DNA of 64,000 nucleotides. It comes from Asparagopsis taxiformis (Eukaryota > Rhodophyta > Florideophyceae > Bonnemaisoniales > Bonnemaisoniaceae). Both the position numbers and the translations under genes were made by a program. The notes below the pieces were generated by a model, which ran no database searches, had not been told where the DNA came from, and saw only the letters and a list, made by a program, of their open reading frames with translations. The DNA lies in assembly GCA_030407315.1 (NCBI GenBank), contig JALQPE010002551.1:1-64000 (forward strand). Reading direction: 5' to 3'. How positions within the stretch are numbered: position 1 is the first letter of the stretch; each line of letters begins with the position of its first letter. Shown piece after piece: positions 19,100 through 60,235 of this stretch.

Positions 19100-19145
19100 A
19101 ACACTGATTTCGCTATGAACAGAACGTACTTTCCAAACCAGAATC
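19100..19145 (+). repeat. Left terminal inverted repeat
   Basis: 46 bases beginning AACACTG. They match the reverse complement of 60190-60235 except at positions 8, 14 and 35. Confidence 0.92.
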
Positions 19146-19154
19146 CAACTTTCT

Positions 19155-19222
19155 GAAGTTGATTGAACATGAGAGATGTTTTTTCATATTGATTGAATAG
19201 GATAACAAAGTTGATTGAACTA
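19155..19222 (+). repeat. Left subterminal TTGATTGA iterons
   Basis: Three spaced copies of (G/A)TTGATTGAA lie just inside the TIR. Two related copies (GTTGATTGA on the minus strand) occur at 60145-60175. Such repeats usually bind the transposase. Confidence 0.65.
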
Positions 19223-19248
19223 CTCGTGTCGTCGAAGACGAGGCGTTT

Positions 19249-21477
19249 TTACTTCGGAATAGACGCCAGGCCTGACCTGATCTCTTTCTCTACCCCAACT
19301 CTTATCATCTTGTTTGTTAGTGAAGGGAACTCTGCAATGACGGTGTCAACCGAAATATGTCCCTTCCAAGCCACTGTTGTTCTCCCCTTGCGAAGCATGG
19401 CAGGCCTATACTTACCTGACCATGCGTCTCTTCCATCGTAGACCTCGTACCACCGAACACACAGCTGACAAATAACCCCTTCGTTGTTTTTCTTACAACT
19501 CATAATTTGTCCTAGCCAGAACGGCATCTCAGTAGTACAGTCTTCTCCATTTACAGCCACGAAGCGATTCACCGAGTAGGGCAAGTCTGATAGTGGTATG
19601 CAATCTGCAGTCGACATGAGTTCCTCCTCCATCGGGACGACGTTCCGATTCCCTTTTCGATACATGCCATTCATCTCGAAACATTCGGTGAGGTTCCAAT
19701 GAAAAGAATCTTCCCTTTCCTCATAAACCTGTCGTAGAAGCTCATGTAGCTGATCCATTTTAGAATTGTTATTGACCCTGCTCTCTTCCGAACGAAAACG
19801 GAGCAGGAACTCATGTTGATCTGGAGGAGAACGTATGATATTACTCGGTGTTCGTTTCAGTTCAGGAGGCTTAACCAGGAAACCATTCAGCCCCGGAGTG
19901 AGAACTGGGAGAGGCTTCCAGTTGTCTTCACAAAATATCTTAACATCGCATGCAGTTCTGTAGAAGTCATAACTTTTTCCTGTATCTTGGGATCGGTGAA
20001 ACCTGAAGTATCTGAATTTTGAGAAAGCATGCACTTTTCCAACCGAATTCTCACTCCGGCAGAGACCGGAGAAGTTTGCCACGTGCAACATACGAGAGAC
20101 AGAGGGTTCCGGAGTATAGGACACTCTGAGTTGTTCAACTAAATCTTCCATAGTGACGGCGTTGTGGGAACGTAGCCTGCGAGAGGTACAGCTAAAGGCC
20201 TGGTCGATGTCTGCATGGGTGTGGCCGATGGGTAGGAAAGAAGCGTGTACTTCTTCAAACACACCCCAAGCAACGAGACATTCTAGATAGCAAAACAGAA
20301 ACGTGTTCTTGTTCTCTCTTGTGCAATTGTCTACCTGCAAGTACAGTGTTCCCTGAAGACTCGAACCCATAGCCTTTTTGGTAAGAGTCCTGTGAATTGC
20401 CTCGATGATATGATTTGCCCCAGTTTCGAATTCAGCAGTAAGTGTGTACAACGAAAGATGCTTTCGGACACCATGTTCGAGAACACCTATGAGTCTCACC
20501 TTCAAACTATGACCAACAGTCGCTTTTGTACATACCGTGAAATGGGGAAGACCGTATCCTGATTGATCAGCCCCGTCTACGATCAGAGACGTGAACCTGG
20601 AGGAATATAGTGACGCTTCTTCACACTTCTTTTGATACTCCCTGCGTTCCCGTGCCACCATCTCGATATGACGCTGGCGACGTTCCAGAAGCGGAGCAGT
20701 GCGTTGAATATCTGTCCCGATGGCTTCCAGTTTATCACGTATGTACTCACATTCCGAACATTTCGTGAACCTCTGGACACGCCGAACCTTGATATTCGCG
20801 CAAAACGTGTTCCAGGTGTTGTAGAAGTAGCTCAAAGTTGGTGGGTTCCGGTTCGAGTATAATAACGTAAATTGGTCGCAGAACATCTCGTACACAGCCT
20901 TCTTCTCGAAAAGAGGCAGATGCTTCTCTCCACTGTCTGGCATCATATCGGCAGTCGAGGCAGACAAGCGTTCAAGGAAGCAGATCACTGCATCTCTATG
21001 TGGAGAGCCAGAAATTCGTTTCGGAGAAGCCATAAATGGAAGACTCCCATTCTGGCAAGCTTTCTTTACCGAGGTCTGCAGGTGTCGTGAAAACTTGAAG
21101 CTGAACTCGAGGAATTCGCAACACACAGGCTTCCCAGAGAAGTAGAACCGGTTACTGTTTGGTTCCAGTAGAGCGTGCAGATACCTGCGGCGATCGTCCC
21201 TGTTGTACAACAAAACTCGTTCTGCTTCATTCCGAAGGAAAACATGGTCGGTTTTTCTGAAGCATCCCGTATTGCAGCATGGTATTCTTCTTATATCTGT
21301 TTTGGGCAGTGACAAACTGAACTTCACCCGCCTCTCTAGCATGCTGCTCTTTCGACGAACTGAACTGGACCTCGTCACACTTTCATAATTCTTCCTGTGT
21401 TGTAGTCGTGAAAATGGTTTATACATCGAAGCCGTGGATCGGAAAGAGTCGGAAGAAGTACCCACTATTCCATGCAT
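19249..21477 (-). CDS. DUF7869-like protein, putative DDD transposase
   Basis: 742 aa from the first ATG at 21477; eight further codons up to a GTG at 21501 are open. The N-terminal third has CCNTGCF and a VCCEFLEFSFKFSRH segment. A CX2C pair (KCSEC, about residue 240) precedes a charged helix rich in R and E. The core has IVDGADQSGYG (D about 301), LQVDNCTRENKN (D about 383) and GHTHADIDQAF (D 423, D 425). The order D...D...HxHxDxD matches the DUF7869 group, which looks like an RNase H-fold nuclease; catalysis is inferred. A C-terminal module (PFWLGQI...VRWYEVYDG) resembles an SH3/BAH-like fold. The stop lies about 105 bp inside the left TIR, as expected for a transposon's own gene. A copia-2-type solo LTR lies 62 bp upstream in the same orientation. 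The frame is intact. Confidence 0.8.
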   Translation of the reverse strand: MHGIVGTSSDSFRSTASMYKPFSRLQHRKNYESVTRSSSVRRKSSMLERRVKFSLSLPKTDIRRIPCCNTGCFRKTDHVFLRNEAERVLLYNRDDRRRYLHALLEPNSNRFYFSGKPVCCEFLEFSFKFSRHLQTSVKKACQNGSLPFMASPKRISGSPHRDAVICFLERLSASTADMMPDSGEKHLPLFEKKAVYEMFCDQFTLLYSNRNPPTLSYFYNTWNTFCANIKVRRVQRFTKCSECEYIRDKLEAIGTDIQRTAPLLERRQRHIEMVARERREYQKKCEEASLYSSRFTSLIVDGADQSGYGLPHFTVCTKATVGHSLKVRLIGVLEHGVRKHLSLYTLTAEFETGANHIIEAIHRTLTKKAMGSSLQGTLYLQVDNCTRENKNTFLFCYLECLVAWGVFEEVHASFLPIGHTHADIDQAFSCTSRRLRSHNAVTMEDLVEQLRVSYTPEPSVSRMLHVANFSGLCRSENSVGKVHAFSKFRYFRFHRSQDTGKSYDFYRTACDVKIFCEDNWKPLPVLTPGLNGFLVKPPELKRTPSNIIRSPPDQHEFLLRFRSEESRVNNNSKMDQLHELLRQVYEEREDSFHWNLTECFEMNGMYRKGNRNVVPMEEELMSTADCIPLSDLPYSVNRFVAVNGEDCTTEMPFWLGQIMSCKKNNEGVICQLCVRWYEVYDGRDAWSGKYRPAMLRKGRTTVAWKGHISVDTVIAEFPSLTNKMIRVGVEKEIRSGLASIPK

Positions 21478-21538
21478 CACTTCATCGTGGCTACGCGGCA
21501 CAGATATGGTTTCAACAGAAGGAGCGTGTTCTGATTCG

Positions 21539-22030
21539 TGTTGAAACGAAATGGTCGCTTACCGAGCGTTTATTGAATCTGCGAGCTCACTACATTATTT
21601 GTATTCTCGCCGAGGTGCGCCGGCGGTGCTAAGGACAGCCTGTTAATAGCTGCTCCAGACAGTCTGTCACTGACAGTCTGTCCTGGTAAACACCCGCTGC
21701 CAATCTGGTACACGTGGGCTTCTCTATCATATCGTCCACACGTGTACACTAATCATAACATTTTCCCTGTGCCATGATGGCAACCCATCCTGGCTTTTCT
21801 AATTACTAATTGAAAGTATGACAAACAAATTGAAACTTCAGACGCTGTTATCTCCGTGAAGAAAGGTCGTAGAAGCTTCGGAGAAGTTGCTACCCGACTA
21901 ATTCGGGCACGCTGAACATGATGAGATAGGTTTCGGAGCGCCTAGAGCACTCCTTCTAGGAGAAATCGAGGGTTAAAGTTTTCTCACGTAACTGAGCCCC
22001 TCAGGGCCTATTACAGTGAGTGCTTCAACC
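21539..22030 (-). repeat. Solo LTR of the copia-2 family
   Basis: About 490 bp matching the reverse complement of the copia-2 LTR (43723-44210), from TGTTGAAACGAA at 21539 to GTGCTTCAAC at 22029, with several changes. No matching target duplication is seen (attcg before, gtttt after). It is probably an LTR-LTR recombination product. It lies directly upstream of the DUF7869-like gene and may replace its promoter. Confidence 0.88.
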
Positions 22031-22584
22031 GTTTTTCAACGAGGAACACGATGAGCCATATTTCAAGGCTCCTAGAGGACTCCTTCATCGAGATTTTCAC
22101 AGGATATTCTCGAGATTGAGTGCTTCTGTTGCTGCGACTCAATTATTCGCAACAATTCGGAGTCCCTAGAAAGAGATTTCATGTATGATTCGGCTTCCTC
22201 CAGTGCGTCATTCCTAGCTTTGGCGAGATGAAAACGCGGAGCCATCTGCAGTGGGAGCAGAACGAATTATCTCTGAACGGTAGTTAGATTTGCAGGTAGC
22301 GTGGAAAAGAGATGGCTGCAAGACGAGTATATCGGTTGATCAAGATGCATGGTGAGTAGGAATGACACCGGTGAGACGTTCATCTAATATGGATGCAGAG
22401 TGGCCTCCTCGACGGCGATAGTTGGCCCAGGATACAGCGCCAAATACCTATGTCAAATCAATCTCTGTTGTGAATGGAGTACGGCTGATTGGTTGATTTG
22501 TCCTCTTCATGCGCCCATGATTACGGGGAAAAATGACAACAATCTTTCCTCTCTGAAGGCCGAGCGAAACTATACGTAATAAGA
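22031..22584. other. Spacer between two transposon genes, nothing recognised
   Basis: About 550 bp between the solo LTR and the 3' end of the methyltransferase gene. No frame, RNA gene or repeat was recognised. It probably held the promoter of the DUF7869-like gene and the terminator of the methyltransferase gene. Confidence 0.45.
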
Positions 22585-22913
22585 CTAAGACAACGGCCTC
22601 ATCTTGTTCAAGTCCCATGCGAATATCCCGTTCAGCCCTTTCAAAGTTCCAGGAGGAGGTTCAATACCACCGTATTTGTACGGGTAAGGACAATCCAAAC
22701 AACATTCGTTCGGTTCGAACATATAACAAGATACAAGTTTCTGATCCTCACCTTGAAAGTTCGCTAGAGGTACATTGTGTATTGTAGTTTGGAACCTCTC
22801 ATCACTAGTTCCTGCACAAAGGAGAGACGCTTTTCCGACGACCTGATCCAAAATGTATAGTTCAACAGAATCTCCTCCTTTCAGTACTCTCTCTATTCCT
22901 TCGATAGTGGATT
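22585..22913 (-). pseudogene. ParB-methyltransferase gene, fragment 4 (C-terminus)
   Basis: Residues 904-1010 of the reconstructed 1,010-aa protein. Bases 22908-22585 are open and in the frame reached after removing copia-1 and one GGATT copy. It contains ECCLDCPYPYKYGG, a Cys-rich segment that may bind metal, and GIEPPPGTLKGLNGIF near the end. The stop is at 22587-22585. Nothing here identifies a separate domain. Confidence 0.85.
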
Positions 22914-23388
22914 TGTGAGAATCAAAATGGTCGCTTACCAGTGTTTACTAAAAATTGCGAGCTCACCAGATTATTTCTACTACTGGCGAGATGCGCCAAC
23001 GGTGAGTCGGACAGCCTGTTCTTGGTTTGTCCAGACAGTCTGTCGTTGCCATCACCACCTGCCAATCTGGTACACGTGTGATTTCTATCATGCCATCGCC
23101 ACGTGTACATATATCATAACATTTTTCCCAGTGCCAGGACCTCAACTCGTCCTAGCATTTCTAATTACTAATTTGAATTATGACAAACAAATTAAAACTT
23201 CTGAGGCTAGTTACTCCGTAATGGAGTGTCGTAAGAGCCCCGGAGAAGTTGCTACCCGACTAATTCGGTGACGCTGAATACAATGAGATAGGTTTCGGAG
23301 CGCTCAGAGCACTCCTTCATAGAGAAATCGAGAGTCAAAGTTTTCTCACGGAATTAGGCCTTCGAGGCCTATTCGCAGTGATTCAACA
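22914..23388 (-). repeat. Copia-1 3' LTR
   Basis: 475 bp, identical by eye to 28957-29431. On the minus strand it begins TGTTGAATCAC and ends in TCTCACA. Confidence 0.95.
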
Positions 23389-23403
23389 CTCCCCCTCTTT
23401 GGC

Positions 23404-26400
23404 TTACTCGATTGATGACAGTGCTGACACACCCATAAGTTCTCGGAGCTTCATGAACTGAACGCGTTGCAGAGGCTTAGTCAGCAGGTCGGCTATCATT
23501 TCAGATGTTGGGCAGTAGTCAATTGCAAACATCTCCTTCAGTAGACAATCTCGGACGAAATGATATTGGATGTCGATATGTTTGGTTCGAGTTCCCGATG
23601 CGTCATTCTTGGCCATCTTGATTGAGCCTTGGTTATCGACATTGATGAGAATCGGATCTGCGGAGCTGTTCCCGCTGCCGAAACCAACTATATTGCTGAG
23701 CCAAATAGCCTCCTTTACAGCAGCACTCAGGGCCATGTATTCAGCCTCGGAGGAAGACTGAGCTACACAGCTTTGCTTGCGAGACTTCCAGCTCACAGCT
23801 GCGCCAGCCATCATGAAGACGTAGCCGCTGGTAGATTTCCGATTTATTGTGCAGCCTCCCCAATCTGAGTCGCTAAATCCTACCGGTGATAGATCCTCTG
23901 AGGCCTTGTAAAGTACCCCAAAACCTTTAGTACCTGAAACATATCGTAGAACGCGCTTCACAGCTACCCAGAGAGATTTGGTTGGAGTCTCGACGAACTG
24001 AGCAAGTCTTCCGACTGCAAACGCGATGTCAGGACGAGTTCCCACAGCTAGATACATTAGGCTTCCAATGGCTTTGCGGTAGAGTGTGGAGTCAATTGCC
24101 TCTGTTTCGGTATCCCCAATCGAGATCTGAGCTTGCATTGGAGTTGTAACAGGGCTGGAGTTTTCCATTCCGAATCGTTCCAATACCTTTTCGGCGTATC
24201 GGGTTTGATTCAAGTGCAACAGCCCTCTGGAAGGGTCTCGTACAATTTCTAGTCCAAGGCACACTCGAGCTCTGCCACAGTCTTTCATCTCGAAGCGTTT
24301 GCAGAACTCTTCCTTTAGTTCGTCCAATAAGTCTCTGCTGCTAGAGGCCAGCAACAAATCATCCACGTAAAGTGCAATGATCATCATAGAATCCTTACTG
24401 TTCCTAACATAGAAGCATGGATCGTACGGGGAGCTCTGGAATGTGAGTTCAGATATGAGAAACTCGTCAATTTTAGCGTGCCACTGCCTTGGAGCCTGTT
24501 TGAGACCGTAAAGTGCTTTCTGAAGTTTACAGACATGGTTGGGATACGCTGGACTCACAAACCCCTCAGGCTGCTCCATGTATATTTCTTGTTCGAGGTC
24601 ACCATAGAGAAAGGCTGTCTTCACATCCATCTGATCGCAGAAAAGATCGTGATGAACAGTCAGAGCGAAGAACATGCGTAGAGTGCAGAACTTGACAACA
24701 GGTGCGTATGTTTCGGCATAGTCAATGCCATATTTCTGCTCGAATCCTCGCGTTACGAGCCGAGCTTTATGCTTTATTGAGTGCTCTCCGTTGTCGTTGA
24801 TGATATCTTTGCGTTTGAAGACCCATTTTGAAGAAAGAAGGTTGACAGCTTCACTGCGGGGGACCAGAATCCAAGTGCGATTTGCATGGAGAGAATCCAT
24901 TTCGGATTGGATTGCTTCGATCCATAGACCTTTCTCCTCCCCCTTGGTCACCTCAGTGAAGGTGAGGAGGTGTTCTGGAGTGGAATCAGCCGCAGCAGAA
25001 ACGATGGCAGTGGTTTTCCACCATTCACCCGGAGGTTTTCGAGCACGGGAAGATTTTCGAGGAGCATTCATAATGGAAACGTCAGGTCCTGAAGCAGATG
25101 TGGGTGGAGGAGATTGTGGCTGTGATGTGATATGTTCAGTAGAGGGACTTGAGGGTGGAGAGGGAGGAGAGTTCTTTTGTGTACGAGAACCTGGAGAGTT
25201 CTCAGATGTGTGGTTCTCAAAAGTCTCATAAGAGAAAGTGTCAAATTCTGTGTAGTCAGACTCCTTAGTCACCGTTTTCGATTTCGTCTCGTCGAAGATC
25301 ACATCTCGAGACACTACTATTTTCTCATTTGTAAAGTCCCATAACTTGTATGCTTTCTGTGCTTCTGCGTACCCAAGCATTATCGCTTTGACTGAACGGT
25401 AGTCTAGCGTCTGTAGATGTTTATCTGGAATTTTATACCAGCAATTACTGCCGAACGTGCGCAAGTGCGCGATGTTTGGTTTTCGGCCGTGCCAGATTTC
25501 AAAAGGAGTCGTTCCAGATGGAAGAGAACGACTAGTAATTCGATTACGAATGTAGGCAGCACAAGAGAGTGCCTCTGCCCAGAACTCCAATGGAGTAGAG
25601 TTGTGATGAAGCATGGTTCGAATGTGATCCTTCAGAGTTCGATTCATACGTTCTGCTACGCCGTTCTGTTGTGGAGTGTATGCACAAGTCGTCTGCCGTT
25701 TGATGCCTTTCATTTCAAGGAAAGAGCGGAACTCATTGGAGAAATATTCTCCCCCTCCGTCGGAGCGTAATTGACGAAGTACTCGCCCTGTTTGTGTTTC
25801 AGCCAAACACAGAAATCGCTGGAATGCATCGAAGCAATCAGACTTCCGATGCAACGGATAGACAGTGAGCCAACGAGACTTGTCGTCAATGAAAGTAACG
25901 AAATATCGAGCTCCCCCTTTTGAGCGTGGTTCTATAGGCCCTGCTAGGTCTGTGTGAACTAAATCAAGTATCTCAAAGGCTCTCGTCAGAGAAGATTTCG
26001 GGATCGCTACACGAGGCATTTTACCGGTAACGCACCCTTCACACAGATGGGTTTTCGGGGATGAGTCGTTTTTGATTCTGAGTCCATTCACCGCGGAGAT
26101 TTGTGCCATTCGAGATATTCCATTTTTGTCGAAGTGGCCTACTCGTTCATGCCATAGTTGCAGAGAAGCAACACAAGCAGATTCTATTCCAATATCCCTT
26201 TCTTTAGGAGGAACATTGAGATCGATAGCATAGAGTCCGTTACGTTTGTGTCCGGTGGCTATCGCGCCTCCGTCTTTAGTTAAGATGACTCCATTGTTCG
26301 TAAACTGTACCGATATTCCACGAGCAGTGAGAGTACTCACTGATATGAGGGAAAAAATAAATGACGGAACATGAAGGACATCTTTAAGTAGGTAAACTCT

Positions 26401-27480
26401 TTCTTTCCCGTTTACTAGGATTGAAAGTTTAACATCGCCACATCCCACAGCTAGTGCAGTTGATTTGTCTCCTAGAGTCACACTGAAAGGTTTTAATTTC
26501 TTGTAGGAAACAAACATTGTTCGATCGAACGTCATATGAGAAGTAGCTGCGGAGTCGATGTACCAGGTAGATGCGATGTGTATCTCCTTGAGCGACTCAG
26601 AATATGATGAGAGTAGACAAACATACTCTTTTCCTTCATCATCTTTGTTCTGTTCAGTGTCCATCGCTACGGCAGCCATAGAGGTTAAGTTCGACTCTCG
26701 TTGAGATATGTGAGCAGAAGTGCGAGGTTTGTTCGAGCGGGAGCGGGGAGGTCGGCCATACTTCTGCCAACAATACGGCTCTGTATGGTTCGTACGCCCA
26801 CAGTGGGTACATTTCTTCCTGTTGATGTTTCCAGAAGGCTTTCCACTTGTGGAAACCAAAGCAGCTGTATCCGAAGACGACCCTCGAGGTTTCTGGATCG
26901 CAGCTCGACGCTCCTCTTGGAGAAGGAGACTGCGTACTTTGTCGAACGTAAAGGTGGGGTCCTCATCCCCGATAGCATCAAGAGCAGTAATAAGCGTTTG
27001 GAAAGACGAGGGAAGTCCATTGAGAACAGCCATGGCCATTTCTTTATCGTCAATGTTGACACCCATGGAGGTCAATACTGTTGCCATTTGTCGAACCCGG
27101 TTGATATAAACCAGCATTTGCTCACCTGGTCTCATCGTAGCAGTATAGAAGTCCCGCCTCGCGGCTAGTTTGTTGAGCAATGTATGCCTTTGATGCACGT
27201 TACAAATCTCTTGCCACATTTCTAGAGCAGTAGTGGTGTGTGTAACATTCTTGAGCATCTCGTCGGACAACGTGATTCCGATGGCCATTCGGGCAGTTTT
27301 ATCCTTCCGTAGCCATTTCGAAAGCTCTTCTGGGTCTGTAGGGCGAGGAGGACAAAGTTCCGAGTCAATCATTTCGTCTACCTCTCGATGACCGAGGATG
27401 AGTTCCATCTTTTGTTTCCATGAATGGAAGTTGGAGTAGTCCAGCTTCTCTATTCGGATCCCAGATGTATTGCTCTCCAT
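23404..27480 (-). CDS. Copia-1 Gag-Pol polyprotein
   Basis: 1,358 aa, single frame, ATG at 27480. Domains in order: Gag (UBN2-like, WKQKMELILGHREV), CX2CX4HX4C knuckle (CTHCGRTNHTEPYC), protease with DSAATSHM, integrase with HERVGH and CEGC zinc ligands and a D-D35-E core (SDGGGEY, GVAERMNRT), a proline/serine-rich linker, reverse transcriptase with YVDDLLLAS, and RNase H (SDSDWGGCTINRKSTSG). The PR-IN-RT-RH order defines Ty1/copia. Length is usual for the family. It is about 80% or more identical to the copia-2 polyprotein over most of its length, with the linker diverged. It has no internal stop, so it is probably functional. Confidence 0.97.
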   Translation of the reverse strand: MESNTSGIRIEKLDYSNFHSWKQKMELILGHREVDEMIDSELCPPRPTDPEELSKWLRKDKTARMAIGITLSDEMLKNVTHTTTALEMWQEICNVHQRHTLLNKLAARRDFYTATMRPGEQMLVYINRVRQMATVLTSMGVNIDDKEMAMAVLNGLPSSFQTLITALDAIGDEDPTFTFDKVRSLLLQEERRAAIQKPRGSSSDTAALVSTSGKPSGNINRKKCTHCGRTNHTEPYCWQKYGRPPRSRSNKPRTSAHISQRESNLTSMAAVAMDTEQNKDDEGKEYVCLLSSYSESLKEIHIASTWYIDSAATSHMTFDRTMFVSYKKLKPFSVTLGDKSTALAVGCGDVKLSILVNGKERVYLLKDVLHVPSFIFSLISVSTLTARGISVQFTNNGVILTKDGGAIATGHKRNGLYAIDLNVPPKERDIGIESACVASLQLWHERVGHFDKNGISRMAQISAVNGLRIKNDSSPKTHLCEGCVTGKMPRVAIPKSSLTRAFEILDLVHTDLAGPIEPRSKGGARYFVTFIDDKSRWLTVYPLHRKSDCFDAFQRFLCLAETQTGRVLRQLRSDGGGEYFSNEFRSFLEMKGIKRQTTCAYTPQQNGVAERMNRTLKDHIRTMLHHNSTPLEFWAEALSCAAYIRNRITSRSLPSGTTPFEIWHGRKPNIAHLRTFGSNCWYKIPDKHLQTLDYRSVKAIMLGYAEAQKAYKLWDFTNEKIVVSRDVIFDETKSKTVTKESDYTEFDTFSYETFENHTSENSPGSRTQKNSPPSPPSSPSTEHITSQPQSPPPTSASGPDVSIMNAPRKSSRARKPPGEWWKTTAIVSAAADSTPEHLLTFTEVTKGEEKGLWIEAIQSEMDSLHANRTWILVPRSEAVNLLSSKWVFKRKDIINDNGEHSIKHKARLVTRGFEQKYGIDYAETYAPVVKFCTLRMFFALTVHHDLFCDQMDVKTAFLYGDLEQEIYMEQPEGFVSPAYPNHVCKLQKALYGLKQAPRQWHAKIDEFLISELTFQSSPYDPCFYVRNSKDSMMIIALYVDDLLLASSSRDLLDELKEEFCKRFEMKDCGRARVCLGLEIVRDPSRGLLHLNQTRYAEKVLERFGMENSSPVTTPMQAQISIGDTETEAIDSTLYRKAIGSLMYLAVGTRPDIAFAVGRLAQFVETPTKSLWVAVKRVLRYVSGTKGFGVLYKASEDLSPVGFSDSDWGGCTINRKSTSGYVFMMAGAAVSWKSRKQSCVAQSSSEAEYMALSAAVKEAIWLSNIVGFGSGNSSADPILINVDNQGSIKMAKNDASGTRTKHIDIQYHFVRDCLLKEMFAIDYCPTSEMIADLLTKPLQRVQFMKLRELMGVSALSSIE

Positions 27481-27663
27481 CGCTCTTTAATATATTTTAT
27501 CTGTTCGACCTTTCCCAAGTAGACGACTGATAGTCGTCGAGGACCAAGCTGGGGTCTATAGGATAGAAACTTCTAGCTAAGAGCGAAGAAAGAAGGAGAA
27601 CAAGTGAACAAGGTTTATGGATGCGAAATCAGCTAGATTCCTAGAGTATAGAAACGAAATTAT

Positions 27664-28182
27664 CTAATCGGAAGTGGAGGAAGAAGCTTTAGAAGCTTTG
27701 GAGATTTTGAGTGCCTTCTCAATTCCTAGATGGCGACGGCCGCGGAGGTGGTTGTCGAATTCACTTTTCGTGCGGACGATGACTCCACACGGTCGGCAAA
27801 CCTTTAGACCTCCTTCTTTAAGACGTTCGACTGTCTTTTTATGTCTTGCGCCGTTGTAATGAGCGACCCTCGACTCGGCAGAATTGAGATAAACGTTGCA
27901 ATCTTTGCACCTAGAGCGATTCGCGTCCTTGTGCGCAGCGTACTTCGTCTTGTTATCTCTCCTCTCGGCAATGCTATAAGCCTTCCGGAAGACGCGATCG
28001 CGGAGAGATTCTCCTTCCCGGCGAAGCCTTGGACGAGGTTCTTCAAGTCGTGGCTGAACACGATCTTCTTCGTCACTGCTAGACACTGCAGGAGAAGTAA
28101 AGGCGAAAGGTTAGGAGTTATACCGATCTTACTAAGGTCTAAACCTTGAAAATGACCGAAAGATGAAAGGTATTAACGTACT
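27664..28182 (-). CDS. Copia-1 double zinc-finger accessory protein (spliced)
   Basis: 139-140 aa upstream of gag-pol on the same strand. It has two fingers of the form CX2CX12HX5H (CKDCNVYLNSAESRVAHYNG..H and CRPCGVIVRTKSEFDNHLRG..H), the spacing of matrin/U1-type fingers that bind RNA or double-stranded RNA. The N-terminus is acidic then basic, and the tail is Ser/Lys-rich. No ATG starts the frame. A predicted intron at 28181-28086 (donor GTACGT, acceptor TTCTCCTGCAG) joins ...CAAAA to TGTCTAGC and so makes ATG at the junction. The copia-2 copy shows the same arrangement. Possible roles are RNA packaging or export; these are inference. Confidence 0.8.
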
Positions 28183-28359
28183 TTTGATAGAGTTGATGAG
28201 ACGAAAACCAATGTATTTTAGTTGATGTGTAGTGAAGGCTATAATGCTATACCGATCAGGACAAGGTTGCTGACTTACAAGAGCAGAACCGAGTTGAGAA
28301 AGGTTTAGACGAGCCAAGATAGAAGCAGCCGGTAGATCCAATAGGTTGGGCAAAAACAG

Positions 28360-28433
28360 CCCAGTTGCTCAGTCGTTAATACTGTGCAGACCAAGAATTA
28401 TTGGTCGTGCGTTCGAGTCCCCAACGGAACGCC
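28360..28433 (+). ncRNA. tRNA-like sequence in copia-1 leader (antisense)
   Basis: TTGCTCAGTCGTT resembles an A box and GCGTTCGAGTCC a B box, spaced as in a tRNA. GACCA/TGGTC can form an anticodon-type stem. The T-stem pairs poorly, so it is probably tRNA-derived rather than a working tRNA. Copia-2 has a clearer counterpart in the same place and orientation. Confidence 0.5.
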
Positions 28434-28598
28434 GTATTACTTTTTTCTTTGAGTTGCCTCAAGTGTCTTGAGATATTCCAAGTATGTCGCAAACTGCCAG
28501 GATGTCACCTGTAGTGATGACACAGTGTCAATGTGACAGTTATAGTTGACAATTGATGTCAAGATGACAGAAAAGTTTTGTCCGGAGTGCGCCGAGCG

Positions 28599-28724
28599 GA
28601 GCGAGGCGTACAGGCGCCGGGGAGCGAGGCGTACAGGCGCCGGGGAGCGAGGCGTACAGGCGCCGGGGAGCGAGGCGTACAGGCGCCGGGGAGCGAGGCG
28701 TACAGGCGCCGGGGAGCGAGGCGG
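28599..28724. repeat. 23-bp tandem repeat in copia-1 leader
   Basis: Five full units of GAGCGAGGCGTACAGGCGCC plus three G and a partial sixth. The period is exactly 23 bp. The units read as repeated GC-rich peptides in shadow frames that are not genes. Confidence 0.92.
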
Positions 28725-28935
28725 AGTGCAACGCGCAGAAAGAAACGAGTAAGAACGCGCGGGAAGAATGGGCAATACGAGCGAGCGAGCGAGAGGAGAA
28801 GCACGCAACGAGCGGAGAGCGTGGGTACCGAGTAACGCAAAATGAACGAGGAGCGAGGGCTGCTGGAAATATATGTTCGCGCGCGCCGGCGAAATTACTC
28901 ACCACTGCGCCAAAATAAAATTGAAACGACCACGA

Positions 28936-28956
28936 AAGCGTGCTGGGCCCATAACC
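28936..28956 (-). promoter_or_regulatory. Copia-1 primer-binding site, half tRNA-iMet
   Basis: Directly next to the 5' LTR. On the minus strand it reads GGTTATGGGCCCAG..., the complement of the anticodon arm of eukaryotic initiator tRNA-Met ending at nucleotide 39. Drosophila copia is known to use a 39-nt tRNA-iMet fragment as primer. 21 of 21 bases fit the tRNA as I recall it. Confidence 0.85.
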
Positions 28957-29431
28957 TGTGAGAATCAAAATGGTCGCTTACCAGTGTTTACTAAAAATTG
29001 CGAGCTCACCAGATTATTTCTACTACTGGCGAGATGCGCCAACGGTGAGTCGGACAGCCTGTTCTTGGTTTGTCCAGACAGTCTGTCGTTGCCATCACCA
29101 CCTGCCAATCTGGTACACGTGTGATTTCTATCATGCCATCGCCACGTGTACATATATCATAACATTTTTCCCAGTGCCAGGACCTCAACTCGTCCTAGCA
29201 TTTCTAATTACTAATTTGAATTATGACAAACAAATTAAAACTTCTGAGGCTAGTTACTCCGTAATGGAGTGTCGTAAGAGCCCCGGAGAAGTTGCTACCC
29301 GACTAATTCGGTGACGCTGAATACAATGAGATAGGTTTCGGAGCGCTCAGAGCACTCCTTCATAGAGAAATCGAGAGTCAAAGTTTTCTCACGGAATTAG
29401 GCCTTCGAGGCCTATTCGCAGTGATTCAACA
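28957..29431 (-). repeat. Copia-1 5' LTR
   Basis: 475 bp, identical by eye to 22914-23388. It ends beside the GGATT duplication at 29432. Confidence 0.95.
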
Positions 29432-30607: not shown

Positions 30608-30608
30608 C

Positions 30609-30621
30609 TGGTCTCTCGACC
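30609..30621 (+). promoter_or_regulatory. Gypsy-2 primer-binding site
   Basis: TGGTCTCTCGACC begins one base after the LTR and is complementary to a tRNA 3' end GGTCGAGAGACCA. Which tRNA this is cannot be told from the window. The rest of the leader to 30706 shows nothing else. Confidence 0.65.
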
Positions 30622-30706
30622 TAGAAGTTGCTACGAGCATAACGACAACCAACGAGGTTGAGCTCTTTTACGTTAACGAAAAGCTACGTGCTACAGACGA
30701 CGGTCT

Positions 30707-45353: not shown

Positions 45354-45537
45354 TACTCCTCTTCTCTAGACACAATAGAAATCTAGCTGATTTCTCTTTG
45401 ATAAACCTTGTTTTCTTGTTCTCCACTCATCTTGCTCTTAGCTAAAAGTCTCTATCCTATAGATCCCAGCTTGGTCCTAGACGACTATCGGTTGTCCACT
45501 TGGGAAGGTTCGAACAGATAAGACTTACTGCAGAGCC

Positions 45538-49620: not shown

Positions 49621-50102
49621 AGCACTGGAATTGGCCCTGAGGGGCTCAATTACGTGAGAAAACTTTGACCCTCGATTTCTCCTAGAAGGAGTGCTCTAGG
49701 CGCTCCGAAACCTATCTCATCGTGTTCAGCGTGCCCGAATTAGTCGGGTAGCAACTTCTCCGAAGCTTCTACGACCTTTCTTCATGGAGATATTAGCGTC
49801 TGAAGTTTCAATTTGTTTGTCATAGTTTCAATTCGTAATTAGAAATGCCAAGATGGGTTGCCATCATGGCAGAGGGAAAATGTTATGATAAGTGTACACG
49901 TGTGGATGATATGATAGAGAAGCCCACGTGTACCAGATTGGCAGCGGGTGCTTGCTAGGACAGACTGTCAGTGACAGTCTGTCTGGAGCAGCCTTGAACA
50001 GGCTGTCCTTAGCACCGCCGGCGCACCTCGGCGAGAATACAAATTATGTAGTGAGCTCGCAGATTCAGTAAACGCTCGGTAAGCGACCAATTCGTTTCAA
50101 CA
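49615..50102 (+). repeat. Copia-2 3' LTR
   Basis: 488 bp, one difference from the 5' LTR (GTACTAG against GTACCAG). It is followed by GCCAT. Confidence 0.95.
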
Positions 50103-51951
50103 GCCATTTCATCTGATAGCATTTAATTCCCATTTCAAGAACGTAGTCTTTTCTTTCTGGCTCATTCGTACCAGATGAACCGCGTTTAGAATGAAGGTTG
50201 AGGCGGTCTGAGTTGATACTAGGTGAAGCAGAGACATCGTTCTCTGTTATCATTCGGTCGACTGGAATAGAAGTTTTCGGTCCGGTGATAACCTTTTCAG
50301 AAGCGTCAACTTCATCTTGTACAGATTCTTGCGTTATCTGGCCCATCTTCGGTACCGAGACTATATCCTCATCACATATTTCGGAGCCTAGTTGAGGAAC
50401 ACTATCTTCCTTCGAGACATCTTTTTGTTTCTCTTCTTTCGCGTCCCTTGTATCTGCATTTTCGTTATCGGCTGCCGTCTTGCCAATTTCCTGACAGAAA
50501 GAATCGGGATCTGGGTCTTTTCGATGGCTTTCCCGATACTTCTTTTCCTTCGTGGGAGCAATTTGAGGGCAAACTTTCCGGTACTGCTTCAAAAGAGCAT
50601 CCAGAATATTATAATCGTTTCCCATGTTCTCCATAACATCAGTATCGAACTTTGATGAGCGAAGTAGATTCTGCTTGATTGATTCCATGCCCTTTGGCCA
50701 TACCTGTCCTTCATGAAGAACCTCGAACTTACGCGCTTCTTTCATCGCTGCGCATGTGTATTCGTATTGCTGGAGGGTATCTTTGTATGATACTGGTTTG
50801 AATTTATTCAATCTGGAGATTCCCCGAAGCCTGTAAAGAGTATGAACTTGAACTTCTTCAGCATCAGTACCCGAAGCATTCATGAACTTGGTTGCAGATT
50901 TCAAAGATGTTATATTCACAAATTTGCGATACACGCGACAGTCAACGCTTGTCATTGGGGTATTAGTACCCTTTCTCCGAGTTTTCAATGCCATACTGTT
51001 GCTAGAAGGAGGTTCTGCCAAGTCTGGATGCTCCGAATTCATAATTGTTCCAATCTCTTCGATCACTCGCACAGGAAGGCGCAATGCCGTCGCAGCAGTC
51101 TGTCTGACGGTGTTATCCTTGAGGTGGGAGCAACCATCATATGCGGCAGCAACTTGTTTGGCTGTAGGTGGCTTTGAGGTCATGCTCTGCATCCGGTGGG
51201 CTTCTTCTTTCATTCCGCTCAGGATATCATAGAACGTGGTTTCGACATATAATGTTGCATCATGCTTACGGTTCTGATGTCTGCCTAGTTGTTTCAGAAC
51301 TTGGATAGAATGACCTCCTTTCAGTATCGTGACAGGCCACATAAAAGAGTCCCACCTCTCCGGGTTCTCATCCATTAACTCCTGGATTGCAGTCAGTCTG
51401 TGCATACCGTCAACAACTCCGTACCAAACGGAACGGCATTCGGACTTCTCTTTCGCCTCACTGTCAGAAAGAAAATCACCCTGAGGACCGCGTATCGTTT
51501 TGAAAAAGTCAATAATGTGGCGCTGGAACGACCCGGTCAACTCGACTACGATCGCATTGTCGGAGCCCGAAATGAATCCATCAATTCCGTTTGTTTCATC
51601 TTGTTCTCGACATTGTGCTGACTTTATGTTTCCAGAAAATATCGACTTCAATCGCAACACACCAGAGCGCACTACTTGTCGAACAGCAGTGAGTGGGATG
51701 CATGCCCGCGGATCAACACGTGTGTTCGTAGACCCTTCCATGACGTCTGCAAATAAGGCGGTATTAGTGTGCTTCATGGTGGAAGTACCCGGTTCCTCTT
51801 CTGGAGGACCTGATTTGGAACTGAGTCTGGACCCACTCCTCTTGAAGAATCTCGTCATGTCATCCAGTTCTGAAATAATGAAGTGCCGGGTAAGAAATGA
51901 AGGGGAAACAGAAGCTATAAAACTCTGTATCAATTTCTCGCACTTTCGCAT
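50103..51951 (-). pseudogene. ParB-methyltransferase gene, fragment 1 (ParB-like N-terminus)
   Basis: Residues 1-616 of the reconstructed protein, ATG at 51951. GVVDGMHRLTAIQEL (178-192) matches the V-D-G-x-H-R signature of ParB/Srx-like domains, and KQLGRHQNRKHD follows about 30 residues later, as the ParB box region does. The next part (PPTAKQVAAAYDG, DNTVRQTAATALRLP) looks helical like a ParB DNA-binding middle. Residues about 480-600 are charged and disordered. ParB domains fused to DPPY methyltransferases are known from phages and bacteria. Beyond 50103 the nominal frame runs into the copia-2 LTR. The frame continues in fragment 2 once copia-2 is removed. Confidence 0.85.
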
Positions 51952-52001
51952 GAAGGACTTGAAATGATTGTCATGAACGCCATACTCAAGTACAGTGTAC
52001 T

Positions 52002-52105
52002 TTCACCATGCATAGTACACTGGCCCAAACCCGAAATGACCGTTCACATTGGATCCAATGTGAACGGTCATTTCGGTTTTGAGCCAGTGTACTATGCATG
52101 GTGAA
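52002..52105. repeat. 104-bp near-perfect palindrome
   Basis: Arms TTCACCATGCATAGTACACT... meet at GGATCC (52051-52056). Only two positions per 52-base arm fail to pair. It lies 50 bp upstream of the ParB-methyltransferase ATG. It may be an operator, a centromere-like binding site for the ParB domain, or a small foldback insertion. Confidence 0.9.
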
Positions 52106-53179: not shown

Positions 53180-53268
53180 CTGATTAGAAGCTGGTTCCCG
53201 TTCTGGTATAAAGCAGGACATGTGCTGCAAGTCCCCGACACTTTCGCCCCATACCACCTCCATCAACA

Positions 53269-54350
53269 ATGACCGAATCATCAGGATCTAAAATAGACCG
53301 ACTGTCTTTCGCGATGAAAGGACAGGTGTCCTCTATCAGGAAGAGAAATCTGGACAGGGCAAAAATCATAGCGAAAAAGTTCGAAGATGGAGAATTGCAC
53401 AAGGTACAATGCTGTTCCCGGCGCTGCTTCGAAATTGCTGCCAGCGAAGATCTAGTAAGGGACTCATTTCGAGTCGTTGAGTATGACCGTACGAGACGAC
53501 AGCGCTACTTAGTATCGTTATATGAGCCGGTGTCGGAAATGTACGCATATCGCGGGAGTGCCGTCTGCTATCAATTCTTAACGCAGGTATTCGGCTTCTC
53601 CCGCGAGATGCAGTGGTCAAACAAAAAACCACTGAAAAAAGCTGCGCAACTGGCGATCGAGAAAAAAAGGGGGGAGAGTGTGAACGTTGTGAGCGCTGTA
53701 TGCGACTCCGCTCTCCATCTCCGCACCATCGAGTACGCTTGCCGGCAGACAAAGCGCATCAATCCGCGCCGAAAAATTCGCACATTGACACGTTCAGTGC
53801 ACAGAAATCTGATATGGACAAACATCTAGCGACGCAAACACAGCCGCAATCTCCTACGGACAAAAATGAAGTGTCGCGTGCTGAGCCTACGGACAAAAAT
53901 GAAGTATCGCGTGCTGAGCAGCAGTTTCAACCCTCCAAAGCTACTGAAAAGCCCATCGTGCAACAGTCCGAAAATTCGGAGACGCTTTCGATTCACGAAG
54001 AAACGGCGCCGCCGAGTCTTCTGAGTGCTACACAATCGGGAAAGAAGTTGTTTCTGGTGGTCAAAGGGGATCAGTGTACGGATGAGGAGCCGTTCTGGGT
54101 GGCGAGAACACATAGAATTACGCGCAAGGGAAACCGTATCGCAAAATTGATGGTTCATTGGTACACCAAAACGGACGCTGACTCCTACCGGAGTAGGTAC
54201 AAACCGTGCTTTGTGCTCGGCACTCCTACACCCTGGATTGACACAATTGCGCTTACTTCGGTGATTACAACGTTTGACTCGCTAGTGGACGGAAAGTTAG
54301 ATGGTGCAACCTGTGATCGAGTACGAGAGCAGTTGCCATCGTTTAAATAA
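53269..54350 (+). pseudogene. Internally deleted DUF7869-like gene
   Basis: Two overlapping frames resemble the two ends of the 742-aa protein at 19249-21477. The first has CCSRRCF, RYLVSLYEPVSEMYAYRGSA and CYQFLTQVFGFSREMQ against CCNTGCF, RYLHALLEPNSNRFYFSG and CCEFLEFSFKFSRHLQ. The second ends with EPFWVARTHRITRKGNRI and KPCFV...VITTFDSL, matching the C-terminal PFWLGQI module. The central 400-450 residues with the DDD residues are absent. It is on the opposite strand and opposite side of the transposon. It is either a relic or a catalytically dead companion that keeps the terminal binding domains. Confidence 0.7.
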
Positions 54351-55539: not shown

Positions 55540-57970
55540 TTCCTCAGCCTTTGTCTGATCAACCAGAGTCACGAGAAAAGCGTTCATATCACTCACAGAA
55601 ACCATTGCGAAAAGTGCAACCTCCACCCAAGCCTACTTCGAAGCGCTTTCGCCATACGTCCCATACTTCAGATGTCGTAACCAAAGAAGGTGGCGCTCGA
55701 ATTCGCCTCTCGGAAGCGCATAATTCGCCAACGGTGCCCTCATCTTCGTCATTTCCTCCAGTGCACACAGCTAAAACACATCGCCAGCTTCCGTGAAATT
55801 TTTCCGAGCGCAGTTCTCAGGAGTCAACTTCTTCCGATGTTCGTGTTGTTGCTCAGGCCACCACCCGTCGCACCTCTGCAACAGCCACTCCTGCCCTTCC
55901 GCCTCGACCACCACTATTATCTGCTCAAGTATTGTCGACAGACACACTTAATCTCAATGACAGTCCTCGCATTCGCTCACCCGATCCTCTCCCCACTCCT
56001 TGCCAGCCCTTGCGTCTTCGTAATGCTTCAAGTGCGAGCCCAACTATTCCTCCACCTTCTACTCATCCGCCAGACACTTCTACCCCACACCAGCTCTTTC
56101 TTCGCGCATTCCAACACGTACATCAATTACAACAGATGACTCTGTGGACGATTGGGGCTAGGATGAACTGTCTGATGACTCTGAAATCGCACCAACCAAG
56201 TTTCCAGCGAAGGGAACTGCCGCTAGCCGAAGCGGATCTATTAGTCGTCTTCACGATCGCATATCACCACCGCAGAAAGCAACCTCTTCAAACAGTGTTA
56301 GGGATCACGGTCCACGCGATACAATTACTCTCACTGCATTTGACGAAGAGTTGGACCAGCACGCCAAATTAGGTGCATCAGATCTTCCTCTTGTGAGTAA
56401 TGTCATTGGTGTGTATGCAGATCCTGCTGCAGAAACAGACGATTGGGGGATGATTTTATCTTGGAACAGCGCCATTCTCCTTCTGGTGATTCTAGTGTGT
56501 ATACGAGTGAAGCACTTTCACCAACAGTCTTTGACAATGATGCACAGGCTAGCCTAGACGAGGATGATTCTGAACAAGTTTCCACTGAAAAACTCATTTC
56601 AGATACAAGCAGTAAGCGCAATTCCTTGGATAAACAGAAGGAAGCCGTCCGCAGCTCAACCCGCAAGAACGCTGAAACTTCTCCCCCGGTTACTACCTGC
56701 CGCTCTGCGAAAATTGCATCATCCCCCCGCCGCACTGAGCGAGTTGCGAAACGCCTGCAATTGAATGATAATGATGGTTCATCCAATGCCACGAATCGTG
56801 ACGACGATAGCAGTCTTACTGATTCTGACGAAGACGTTGATCGAACCAGTGCTGGAATAAAAGGATTAGGCTGCCGATACAACATGGCTAAGAGGGGACA
56901 CTATGTGAGGCTATATCATACAAACATAACGTTGGAAGCGATGCCAACCTTTCACAACATCATCAGGAAGAATTGAGCAGATCGCTGCTCAGATTGCCCG
57001 AGGAGGTTGGTCGAAAACGAGACACTGATAGGTCGTGGTATGAGGAAGGGCTCATGCCATTTATCGTTCTGCCAGTCATCTATGTCAAGCGGGCTGATAA
57101 TTCACCCGAACGCCCCATAGATTAGATGGATACTATGTGGATTAACATTGAACGTGTGGCTGCTTCGGTTGGGAGAGGGATGGTGTCCGCTGGGAAAAAT
57201 TTTGGACGCAAACAACTTTCTACTGCTGGATTAACGTTGGAAAATACGTCATTGTCTCATTTCGACTGATGGTTGAGTACGGCGATGGATCAGAGCAATG
57301 AAGAACAATTTCAAGCACTACTTTTTGCAATGGGTAACACTGAGATGCTTGAACGGCAGACATACTTCCCAGCAGATAAAGAGGCGTTACTGCAAATGGC
57401 TTATCAAGCATTTCAGAGCCCTGATAAAGTGGTGAGGTTGATACCAATCAGTAATTATATGATGAGAGACGAAACTATTTGGAACACTGATGATGAGTGG
57501 CTGGGTGAGTTTGAATGGTGTAGGGAATCAATGCGCTCCAAAGAATCTAACGCTAAGAACCACTCCAAAGATATGCTGGTGCAGTCTGTCGCTGTTGACT
57601 GTTAGAGAGCTTGCTTGATGCTTGCAACAGGTCGAGCAATTCAGGACTCTACAGCAAGGTTACTATCAGACGGAAGTTCCTCGTATAGTGGAGACGGAAA
57701 TACGTCTACTGTCAACCGAAAATGGGCAAGTCAGTAGTACGCATGACAATTTGATCCACGCACCGTCAACATCACAGCTCGCAAGCGACTCATCGATACA
57801 GAAAGCGGCGCAGTTGTCTGCACTGTCGTCGGTTGGAGACCAAAGTGAATCAATCGCAAACATCCAATTCCAACTTTCAGGATTGAGATAAGCTAGTTGT
57901 AGAATTGCGGCAACTAATGGACTGGCTTAGAAAACTTGATGGATCAATTTACTATTGGCGTTTGGCAAAA
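55540..57970 (+). CDS. Possible multi-exon or decayed gene, unknown
   Basis: Successive plus-strand frames lack clean starts: about 55545-55796 (Pro/Ser/Lys-rich), 56443-56976 (acidic and Ser-rich, TDSDEDVDRTSAG), 57273-57605 (QALLFAMGNTEMLERQTYFPADKEALLQMAYQAF) and 57622-57891. TTCCTCAG before 55548 resembles a 3' splice site. The segments could be exons of a disordered nuclear-type protein or a frameshifted pseudogene. No family was recognised. Coordinates mark the region, not an exact CDS. Confidence 0.3.
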
Positions 57971-58370
57971 GTTGAGGAACAAAGAATGAAGTGAGCCGAT
58001 TGAACTTTTACGTAGATTGTTTATCGTATGTACAATTGTAAACGCACAACAGTTCCGCTCTGAGATGACAAAGTTGCCTCCTCACGGCGGATGTCGCTCC
58101 CCACGCGCCGTGATTTACATAAATTTACTTTGCACACAGACGTCTGTTTTGGAGGAGTCAACACGCCACGCCGACAAGCAAAGATGCATCTTTGGACTGA
58201 TGTTCGAGGATCATGATCCTCGAACACTCGTGGGCGACGGCTGGACGCGATTGAGAAACGTCTGCTTCAGTTTCCTCATCCGAAACAGAGGGCAATAGCA
58301 ATGGAGATGGCGAAGCAGAAGCAATTCCGGTCGGGCCCAAAATGGAGTGGGCGACACTGAAGCCGAAACA
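57971..58370. other. Spacer, no gene seen
   Basis: About 400 bp between the unclear plus-strand frames and the minus-strand Ser/Thr/Pro-rich gene. A short palindrome GAGGATCATGATCCTC lies at 58205-58220. Confidence 0.4.
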
Positions 58371-58373
58371 TTG

Positions 58374-59750
58374 TCAGTGGGCGCCGGTGAAATTATAGAG
58401 GCAGAAGGCGTCGCCGATGCTAGTGCCACTGTTATGCCTGCAGATACTGACGGTTGCTGCACGATTGGAGACAAAGTCGGAGACGCGGATACTGTCCGGA
58501 ATTGACTTGCCACGAGAATTGCGCTTTGAGAAGGCTGTGCCAATGGTTTCGCCAGGTATAAAACTTGATGGTGTATCACTCTGTAACGTAATGGTTATAC
58601 CAGTTGACGGTGACGGTGGCGGGGTGTTCGACGCTGTTGGTGACGATGATGTACTTGGAAGCGGAGAACTGGTTGGTGCCGCAGAATTTGAAGAACTAGC
58701 AGACGGCGTTTGCGTTGATGATTTACTCGCCTGTGGAGAACTAGTAAGTGTCGCAGAAGAAGAAGAGCTTGCAGATGGCATCGGCGTAGATGATGTAATT
58801 GCTCGTGGAGAGCTAGTGGGCGCCGCAGAGGACGAAGAACTGGCAGATGGCGTCGGCGTTGATGACGTACTCGCTCTTGGAGAACTAGTCGGTTCTGCAG
58901 AAGACGAAGAACTGGCAGACATAGACGCAGATGGTGTTGTGCTCAGAACTGGAGATGGTGCATCACTCGGTGTGATTTGGCCAGATGACGAGGATGATGG
59001 CGTGACAGAAGTCGAGACGCTCGGATGAGGAGTGGGCGAAACGGGTCGAAGGGGCGTTGGTGTCACAGTCGGTTCAATTGACGCTGCTGACGAGCTCGGA
59101 GTCGGTGTCGATGTTGGCGTCGGTGCAGTAATTGACTTTGTCGGTGATGCAGAAGCTTGTACAGGCACTGGCATCGGCGTCTTTGTGGGCCCTCGGGGCG
59201 ATTCGCTTGGCGATAGCGTCGGCATTGCTGAGGCGCTAGGTGATGCGAGCTCGCTGGTCAAGCTACTCGGACTACCTGTCAATGATGGCGACGGAGAGAT
59301 ACTCGGCTGGAGAAATGAAATGGTACTAATATGGTCAGTTTGGTGTCTTGCAGGCCGATTGATGTTGGAAAGTTGAACGCGGTGCGGGAATCGAACGTAC
59401 TGTTACTGACGCCGAGTCAGAAGGCCTCGGGATATCGTTGAAAAAGTTTTGCACATCCACATCGACTCTGTAATTGCATGTGGATTCGGCTCTGACGGCA
59501 ATCATATAGCGAATGTTACCGTCCAAATTGAGGTTGAGAATGACAGGCCTGGTTTCGATAAAGGTGCGAACTACTTGGAGAGATGTACTTTGGGATTCAT
59601 CCAAGAAGATAAATGTTTCATCTCTACCGAACGACGTTTGCCCGCAAGAACGAGCAGAATCTGCCACAGAAACCCTGTATTTCTTGCAAGAAAGTTGGGA
59701 CGACAGTGATTGGAAGACCGTCATCTTATCAAAGTCATCGCGAATGGAGC
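58374..59750 (-). CDS. Ser/Thr/Pro-rich protein, probably spliced
   Basis: Minus-strand frame 59724-59335 (FLDESQSTSLQVVRTFIETR, ILNLNLDGNIRYMIAVRAES) is followed, in another phase, by an open frame to 58374 with no ATG of its own, which suggests an intron around 59300-59380. The frame before 59724 is open back to TTTCAG, a plausible acceptor, so an upstream exon may exist. The second part is mucin-like, with at least three 24-residue (72-bp) repeats of the form PSASSSSSAAPTSSPRA. Such proteins are often extracellular or cell-wall linked. No signal peptide is visible. It may be cargo of the transposon. The opposite strand gives a long acidic frame that I regard as a shadow. Confidence 0.45.
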
Positions 59751-60189
59751 TCTGAAACTGGGCGAGACGAATACCTATGAGATTGGAAGATTATATAAGC
59801 CTCATTTCACCGCTATCGGTGCATGGGGGTGCTCAGAATTAGTGTGAAAGTCGACATGGCATGGCTGTACAGTCAATAGAAACACGGTGCATAATTAAAT
59901 TTTTGTAAAACATTATGTTAACTATGAGCTCGGAAATGATCATATTTTCTTGGTAACTACCAATAGGGTTGCTGCAGCGCTGGACGGTAGAATCACAAGC
60001 AGTGGAAACAGGCTGTCTGTACAAAATAGCAGAAAGGAAGAAACAGGCTGTCAAACAGCGGATCTGAGCAGGGCCGAACCATACATGGATTTTCAGTGGA
60101 ATTCCAGTCAATCATTATTTCATCGTCGTTGTCATTGGCTACAATTCAATCAACATTTTTCTGGGTCAATCAACATCTCAAAATTTGCC

Positions 60190-60235
60190 GATTCTGGTTT
60201 CGAAAGTACGTTCTGTTCATATCGAAACCAGTGTT
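60190..60235 (-). repeat. Right terminal inverted repeat
   Basis: Ends ...CCAGTGTT. On its inner side GGTTTCGA and TCGAAACC form an additional inverted repeat within the TIR. Confidence 0.92.

What the first reader, a model, noticed from the sequence alone, without database searches (positions are those of the whole stretch)
19100..60235. A large TIR DNA transposon carrying a ParB-like/DPPY methyltransferase fusion and a DUF7869-like putative transposase
The borders are proven by the split gypsy integrase: CGCG on both sides, TIRs matching at 43/46, iterons inside both ends. Between them are a DDD-type protein next to the left TIR and a fused ParB-like plus amino-methyltransferase gene. A eukaryotic cut-and-paste element that brings its own DNA methyltransferase joined to a ParB-like domain would be an unusual combination. 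It could mark its own DNA, regulate itself, or target hemimethylated DNA after replication. The system interpretation is inference; the parts and borders are visible.
Basis: partly seen in the sequence, partly recalled or inferred. Interest (0 to 1): 0.93.

Follow-up and report, generated by a model that had tools for sequence, protein, structure and literature searches.

The report
Transposon carrying its own DNA methylase
A large jumping gene in an alga carries, beside its transposase, a gene for a bacterial-type DNA-marking enzyme; the pair appears to travel and evolve together, so these elements may chemically mark their own DNA, although similar genes have already been reported in other algal transposons.

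Summary
Window 19100-60235 is a DNA transposon with TIRs matching at 43/46 and CGCG on both sides; a second gypsy copy in the window shows the empty site. Its true length is 14.18 kb: the window copy holds four nested LTR insertions that split both genes. Open copy C2332 encodes a DUF7869 protein (predicted RNase H-like DDD core, BAH-like end) and one 1027-codon frame joining a ParB-like region to a CcrM-like N6/N4 DNA methylase. A second family in the genome (12.4 kb, TIR AACACAG...) has both genes between TIRs in six of six paired copies, with 4-bp duplications at 4 of 5 sites. Six transposase/methylase pairs diverge in step (r 0.94). The host is probably a red alga; no C5-methyltransferase was found. 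ParB-methylase genes in algal transposons, including a Sola1 element, are in print, so the kind is known. The transposase fits Sola (DDD, 4-bp duplication), but no Sola sequence was available. Most likely function, inferred: the methylase marks element DNA to control expression or transposition. Against: 2 of 5 paired family-1 copies have unmatched duplications; the ParB label is weak; there are no methylation data.

The parts
19096..19099 (.). left target-site duplication CGCG
   Evidence: second gypsy copy at 36402 has one CGCG
19100..19145 (+). left TIR (AACACTG...), 43/46 with the right TIR
19158..19220 (+). subterminal iterons (TTGATTGA, three copies)
19250..22383 (-). DUF7869 transposase gene; interrupted in the window by a solo LTR at 21539-22155; 837 codons stop to stop in copy C2332 (791 aa from the Met of P0003)
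21539..22155 (.). nested solo LTR (absent from C2332)
22588..52002 (-). ParB-like + N6/N4 methylase gene in four pieces (22588-22914, 29432-29945, 43366-43723, 50103-52002); single 1027-codon frame in C2332
22915..29431 (-). nested copia retrotransposon
29946..43365 (.). nested gypsy retrotransposon (includes the uninterrupted integrase site at 36402)
43724..50102 (+). nested copia retrotransposon
53212..54347 (+). core-less transposase paralogue: matches the N-terminal Cys region and the C-terminal BAH-like region of the transposase, lacks the DDD core; one 379-codon frame in copy C2665, two frames here
56162..56974 (+). cargo ORF of unknown function
58215..59791 (-). cargo: Ser/Thr/Pro-rich ORF(s); this right-hand stretch is replaced by other ORFs in copy C2665
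60190..60235 (-). right TIR
60236..60239 (.). right target-site duplication CGCG

Best explanation
This is a copy of a large DDD-type DNA transposon family in an alga, probably a red alga. A DUF7869 transposase with a predicted RNase H-like core and a C-terminal BAH-like domain inserts the element with a 4-bp stagger. The element carries a dedicated ParB-like + beta-class DNA methylase (predicted N6-adenine or N4-cytosine), inherited together with the transposase. Shown: borders, duplications, empty sites, both genes between TIRs in two families, co-divergence over six pairs, predicted folds. Inferred: the N-terminal ParB-like region brings the methylase to element DNA, and the mark controls the element (expression, or post-replicative gating of transposase access to the ends). 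The window copy itself is a damaged member with nested insertions. Classification as Sola1 is likely but unproven.
Against: Of five family-1 copies read at both ends, two (C2665 GTAG/GTCC, C2648 GGAA/AGTG) lack a matching duplication; these have divergent right ends and may be recombinants or assembly chimeras. In family 2 the C2038/C2012 site reads 5 and 3 bp, and 16 of the 28 TIR matches are not in a facing pair. 12 of the 40 scored left ends have no scored methylase beside them (only the best candidates were scored). 10 of 46 methylase rows carry stops; in family 2 the methylase frame is short in C974 (537) and C2255 (494). pN/pS among six recent copies is 0.65 for the methylase, 0.49 for the transposase, single methylase pairs 0.44-1.56. 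No Pfam ParBc hit, and the ParB part was not covered by the fold comparison. Metagenomic homologue P0131 has EPPH in place of DPPY. No methylation data. Same-contig placement of the four metagenomic pairs is inferred from equal contig length and source.
Confidence: 0.72

Rival explanations
1. The methylase is passive cargo: captured once and carried along, without any role in transposition or regulation of the element.
For: pN/pS among recent copies is only mildly below 1 (0.65); right-hand cargo differs between copies C2332 and C2665; 10 of 46 methylase rows have stops.
Against: The same pair lies between TIRs of a second family with a 31% identical methylase, the six pairs co-diverge, and catalytic motifs persist across deep divergence (DPPY in 8 of 9), while the right-hand cargo was replaced in the one other copy examined.
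Confidence: 0.2
2. The methylase protects the element from host silencing or host nucleases (counter-defence) rather than gating transposition.
For: Fungal transposons carry TET/JBP enzymes, proposed to help escape from silencing (PMC12730594, abstract and passages read). The BAH-like domain suggests chromatin contact.
Against: The host genome shows no C5-DNA methyltransferase family match (intron-rich genes could be missed), so escape from 5mC silencing is less likely; no restriction-like target in the host is known to me.
Confidence: 0.3
3. The two genes are independent mobile or host genes that happen to sit between repeats, or an artefact of assembly.
For: Two of five paired family-1 copies have unmatched flanks; allelic contigs inflate counts.
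Against: Near-constant spacing from the left end in 23 of the 28 places with a scored left end; six of six facing pairs in family 2 hold both genes; empty site of C2332 at 40 of 40 scored places.
Confidence: 0.03

Closest known systems
Sola1-1_Ec32 of Ectocarpus (PMC12477816; passages read)
   Same: Giant DNA transposon in an alga with a single gene (1104 aa product) joining a ParB-like domain to an N4/N6 DNA methylase, next to a transposase; Sola is described as DDD with 4-bp duplications (PMC10741241, passage).
   Different: There 21.5 kb with the methylase on the strand opposite to the transposase; in family 1 both are on the same strand (14.2 kb), in family 2 on opposite strands (12.4 kb). 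No Sola sequence was available, so identity of DUF7869 with Sola1 transposase is untested.
Red and green algal transposon ParB-methylases (cited in PMC12477816 as refs 50 and 51; ref 51 looked up and not held; neither read)
   Same: Same gene type, according to the citing paper.
   Different: The citing paper names giant EnSpm elements in red algae; this element begins AACACTG with 4-bp duplications and has a DUF7869 transposase.
CcrM / beta-class DNA methylases and bdelloid N4CMT (PDB 6pbd, 8s9m)
   Different: Joined to a ParB-like N-terminal region and carried by a transposon.
TET/JBP-carrying fungal DNA transposons (PMC12730594; abstract and passages read)
   Same: DNA transposons carrying a DNA-base-modifying enzyme.
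   Different: Demethylating dioxygenase, not a methylase; other transposases; in part of the cases moved between superfamilies, whereas here the pair co-diverges.

Membership tests
Sola superfamily of DNA transposons | 4-bp target-site duplication (PMC10741241) | tested here: met
   Family 1: 3 of 5 paired copies match, 2 do not; family 2: 4 of 5 sites
Sola superfamily of DNA transposons | DDD transposase (PMC10741241) | tested here: met
   D350, D432 and D472/D474 invariant in 60 of 60, placed on an RNase H-like predicted core; catalysis not tested
Sola superfamily of DNA transposons | transposase sequence similarity to Sola transposases | not testable with these tools
   No Sola sequence held; Pfam names only DUF7869, and no held paper uses that name
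EnSpm/CACTA | termini beginning CACTA/CACTG directly next to the duplication (recalled) | tested here: not met
   Element begins AACACTG; two bases separate CACTG from the duplication; the only Pfam hit of the transposase is DUF7869
Kolobok / piggyBac | TTAA duplication (PMC9587614 passage) | tested here: not met
   Matched duplications CGCG, CCCA, AACC, GTCC, GTAT, CATT, ACTT
beta-class N6/N4 DNA methylase | PF01555 above cut-off, DPPY before the glycine motif, fold | tested here: met
beta-class N6/N4 DNA methylase | methylation activity and target | not testable with these tools
   needs assay or modified-base sequencing
ParB/Srx-like superfamily | DG.HR motif | tested here: met
   DG.H in 9 of 9, R in 8 of 9; that this motif marks the superfamily is recalled
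ParB/Srx-like superfamily | profile or fold match | tested here: inconclusive
   No ParBc hit; DndB in 3 of 9 members (best E 0.0084); GmrSD_N E 0.13; fold comparison did not cover this region

The most novel reading that the evidence does not exclude
In a eukaryote without detectable C5 DNA methylation genes, DUF7869 transposons have kept an obligate two-part system: a BAH-tipped transposase and its own co-evolving ParB-like DNA methylase that writes N6A/N4C on the element's ends, with the methylated or hemimethylated state licensing transposition (as Dam does for bacterial IS10, recalled) and a core-less transposase copy acting as repressor. Together with the other methylase genes of this genome (150 scored above cut-off, more not scored, some fused to SET domains), transposons would be the main writers of DNA methylation here.
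Probability: 0.2. Interest if true: 0.88.

Novelty: new member of a known kind. Interest (0 to 1): 0.6.

Why it matters
ParB-methylases in algal transposons have been noted, but the paper seen gives only a suggestion for their role. Here two TIR-bounded families in one genome, an open copy, exact borders, empty sites and co-divergence with a named transposase domain (DUF7869, which no paper in the held library names) make the question directly testable: does a eukaryotic transposon write its own DNA methylation, in a host without detectable C5 methylases?

Tried and rejected
Viral origin: scans of IMG/VR with both alignments confirmed no relative. Phages: 68 of 50,697 records match, none over 80% of the query; the 10 rows listed match only the methylase domain (22-26% identity), so a recent phage origin of the fused gene is not supported. 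The 379-codon core-less paralogue has one database relative, 99% identical over 71% and probably the same organism. A second DUF7869 gene about 13 kb from the left end (C3119, C673, C991) was suspected to be part of the element; I examined C3119 only: its right end, at C3119:21435, lies before that gene. C-terminal region of the methylase: no convincing Pfam family in five homologues; my impression that it resembles a domain of plant CACTA proteins is recalled and unsupported. MT-A70 search found nothing, but no control genome rang either, so it says nothing. The host species was not identified (paper search did not help). No held paper names DUF7869; in the listings of searches I recognised no further report of ParB-methylase transposons beyond PMC12477816. 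The fold list of the methylase model shows only methylases; absence of ParB folds there is not evidence.
Full report
WHAT IS THERE. The window element runs from 19100 to 60235, flanked by CGCG, with TIRs matching at 43 of 46 positions. The flanks are a gypsy integrase; another copy of the same gypsy inside the window reads through the site with a single CGCG at 36402.

THE REAL SIZE. Copy C2332 of the same genome (L039+L040) is 14,182 bp with AACC on both sides. Aligned to it, the window copy is 99.3-100% identical in five blocks and carries four extra stretches: a solo LTR (21539-22155), a copia (22915-29431), a gypsy (29946-43365) and a second copia (43724-50102). The first splits the transposase gene, the others split the methylase gene. 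The window copy is thus a damaged member; open copies exist elsewhere.

MANY COPIES, NEW SITES. The family TIR has 178 matches in the genome with up to 2 mismatches, none for the reversed pattern. Five family-1 copies were read at both ends: C2423 CGCG, C3054 CCCA and C2332 AACC match; C2665 (GTAG/GTCC) and C2648 (GGAA/AGTG) do not. The last two have right ends only about 80% identical to the window's, and C2665 has an unrelated right-hand cargo in place of positions 9,224-13,806 of C2332; recombination between copies, or assembly error, may explain this. The joined flanks of C2332 match 40 of 40 scored places over the whole query at 98-99% (1373 candidates), so that copy sits in a repeat whose empty form is common. 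Some contigs are allelic duplicates (same or nearly the same flanks: C2532/C500, C1962/C265, C384/C98, C2042/C222, C3048/C3047), so counts are not independent insertions.

CO-OCCURRENCE. Of 45 genome places with the methylase (3291 candidates, 45 scored), 28 have a scored left TIR end in the right orientation, 23 of them at 2867-2930 bp and 5 (truncated matches) at 3271-3828 bp; only 40 of 350 left-end candidates were scored, and 12 of these 40 have no scored methylase nearby. 36 of 46 match rows have no stop, though some are partial.

A SECOND FAMILY. Methylases next to other DUF7869 genes led to C2012, with a 730-codon DUF7869 frame and a 1106-codon ParB-like/methylase frame on the opposite strand, 31% identical to P0002 over an 819-column alignment that includes the ParB-like region. 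Comparing copies gave the end ...CTGTGTT. The TIR AACACAGTATACTAGCAGAAAA occurs 28 times, 0 in control. Six contigs have facing pairs (C974, C609, C2255, C2616 at 12.37-12.40 kb; C2038 and C2012 longer), 12 of the 28 matches; both genes lie inside all six, although the methylase frame is short in C974 and C2255 (537 and 494 codons). Duplications: GTCC, GTAT, CATT, ACTT match; the site shared by C2038/C2012 reads 5 and 3 bp. Both families begin AACAC(T/A)G.

TRAVELLING AS A PAIR. Of nine database relatives of P0002, one (P0123, 100%) is taken as the window genome's own; four of the other eight share contig length and source with a DUF7869 relative (7926, 8748, 8109, 7140 bases). With own and family 2 this gives six pairs; the identity matrices correlate at 0.936, reached by 3 of 720 permutations including the true one. 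Same-contig placement is inferred from the lengths, not read.

SELECTION. Among six family-1 copies, pN/pS is 0.49 (transposase) and 0.65 (methylase), single pairs from 0.39 to 1.56. Recent copies are too alike for a strong statement; the case for function rests on motif conservation and co-inheritance.

OTHER CARGO. A 379-codon frame (C2665; two frames in the window and C2332) matches the first Cys region and the BAH-like end of the transposase but has no catalytic core: a candidate repressor, by analogy with core-less transposase derivatives (recalled).

HOST. Phycobilisome genes (13 matches, 11 on contig C469), with two equal-scoring matches 177,170 bp apart on C469, point to a plastid of a red alga; a contaminant plastid or a glaucophyte is not excluded. 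No PF00145 candidate at all, whereas 10 of 14 control genomes ring; introns could hide a gene.

COMPARISON. [quoted passage not shown] PMC10741241 (passage) gives Sola as DDD with 4-bp duplications. The present elements fit those two features; sequence membership is untested. I therefore file this as a new member of a known kind. What I did not find described in the papers seen is the DUF7869 identity with its BAH-like end, the core-less paralogue, the co-divergence of the pair, and the setting without detectable C5 methylases.

MECHANISM. Shown: insertion with a 4-bp duplication; both genes inside; predicted folds. Inferred from established families: DDD cleavage and joining; methylation by a beta-class enzyme. 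Inferred only: self-targeting through the ParB-like region, and a regulatory use of the mark. Passive cargo and counter-silencing remain open rivals.

Noticed in passing
L043:971-4528 (C116) and L044:577-3816 (C1937): Open 1186- and 1080-codon frames joining a DNA methylase (PF01555) to a C-terminal SET domain (PF00856, 27.5 and 29.5 bits), the first with a ParB-like DGAHR motif. One search lists many equal-scoring places; which transposon carries them was not determined.
   Followed up: partly
L050:126-3896 (C116): 1257-codon frame with a ParB-like DGSHR motif and a C-terminal stretch that by eye resembles a 2-oxoglutarate dioxygenase; no Pfam hit.
   Followed up: no
whole genome G000: PF01555 gives 2605 first-look candidates, all 150 scored rows above cut-off; PF25273 502 candidates, 150 scored, all above cut-off: methylase and DUF7869 genes are very numerous in this alga.
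   Followed up: partly
whole genome G000: No C5-DNA methyltransferase (PF00145) candidate, while 10 of 14 control genomes ring.
   Followed up: no
L045:1490-4318 (C197) and L042:1282-4599 (C2012): ParB-like/methylase proteins ending in a Cys/His cluster that looks PHD-like by eye; no Pfam hit for it.
   Followed up: no
C2665 (L003, L041) and C163 (L012): The left flank of C2665 (GTAG) equals the right flank of C163 (GTAG), while C2665's own ends do not match: possible exchange between copies, or chance in 4 bases.
   Followed up: no
window about 55278-59860 against L041:3385-7463: Right-hand cargo of copy C2665 differs wholly from that of C2332 and the window, while the methylase protein is 97-100% identical in the listed copies.
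   Followed up: partly
L048:1887-4340 (C3119): A different 818-codon DUF7869 frame starts about 1 kb beyond the right end of a family-1 copy: neighbouring or nested DUF7869 elements.
   Followed up: partly
window 39881-42304: Inside the nested gypsy stretch, beyond its pol frames, a long open frame (807 codons, - strand) of unknown kind.
   Followed up: no
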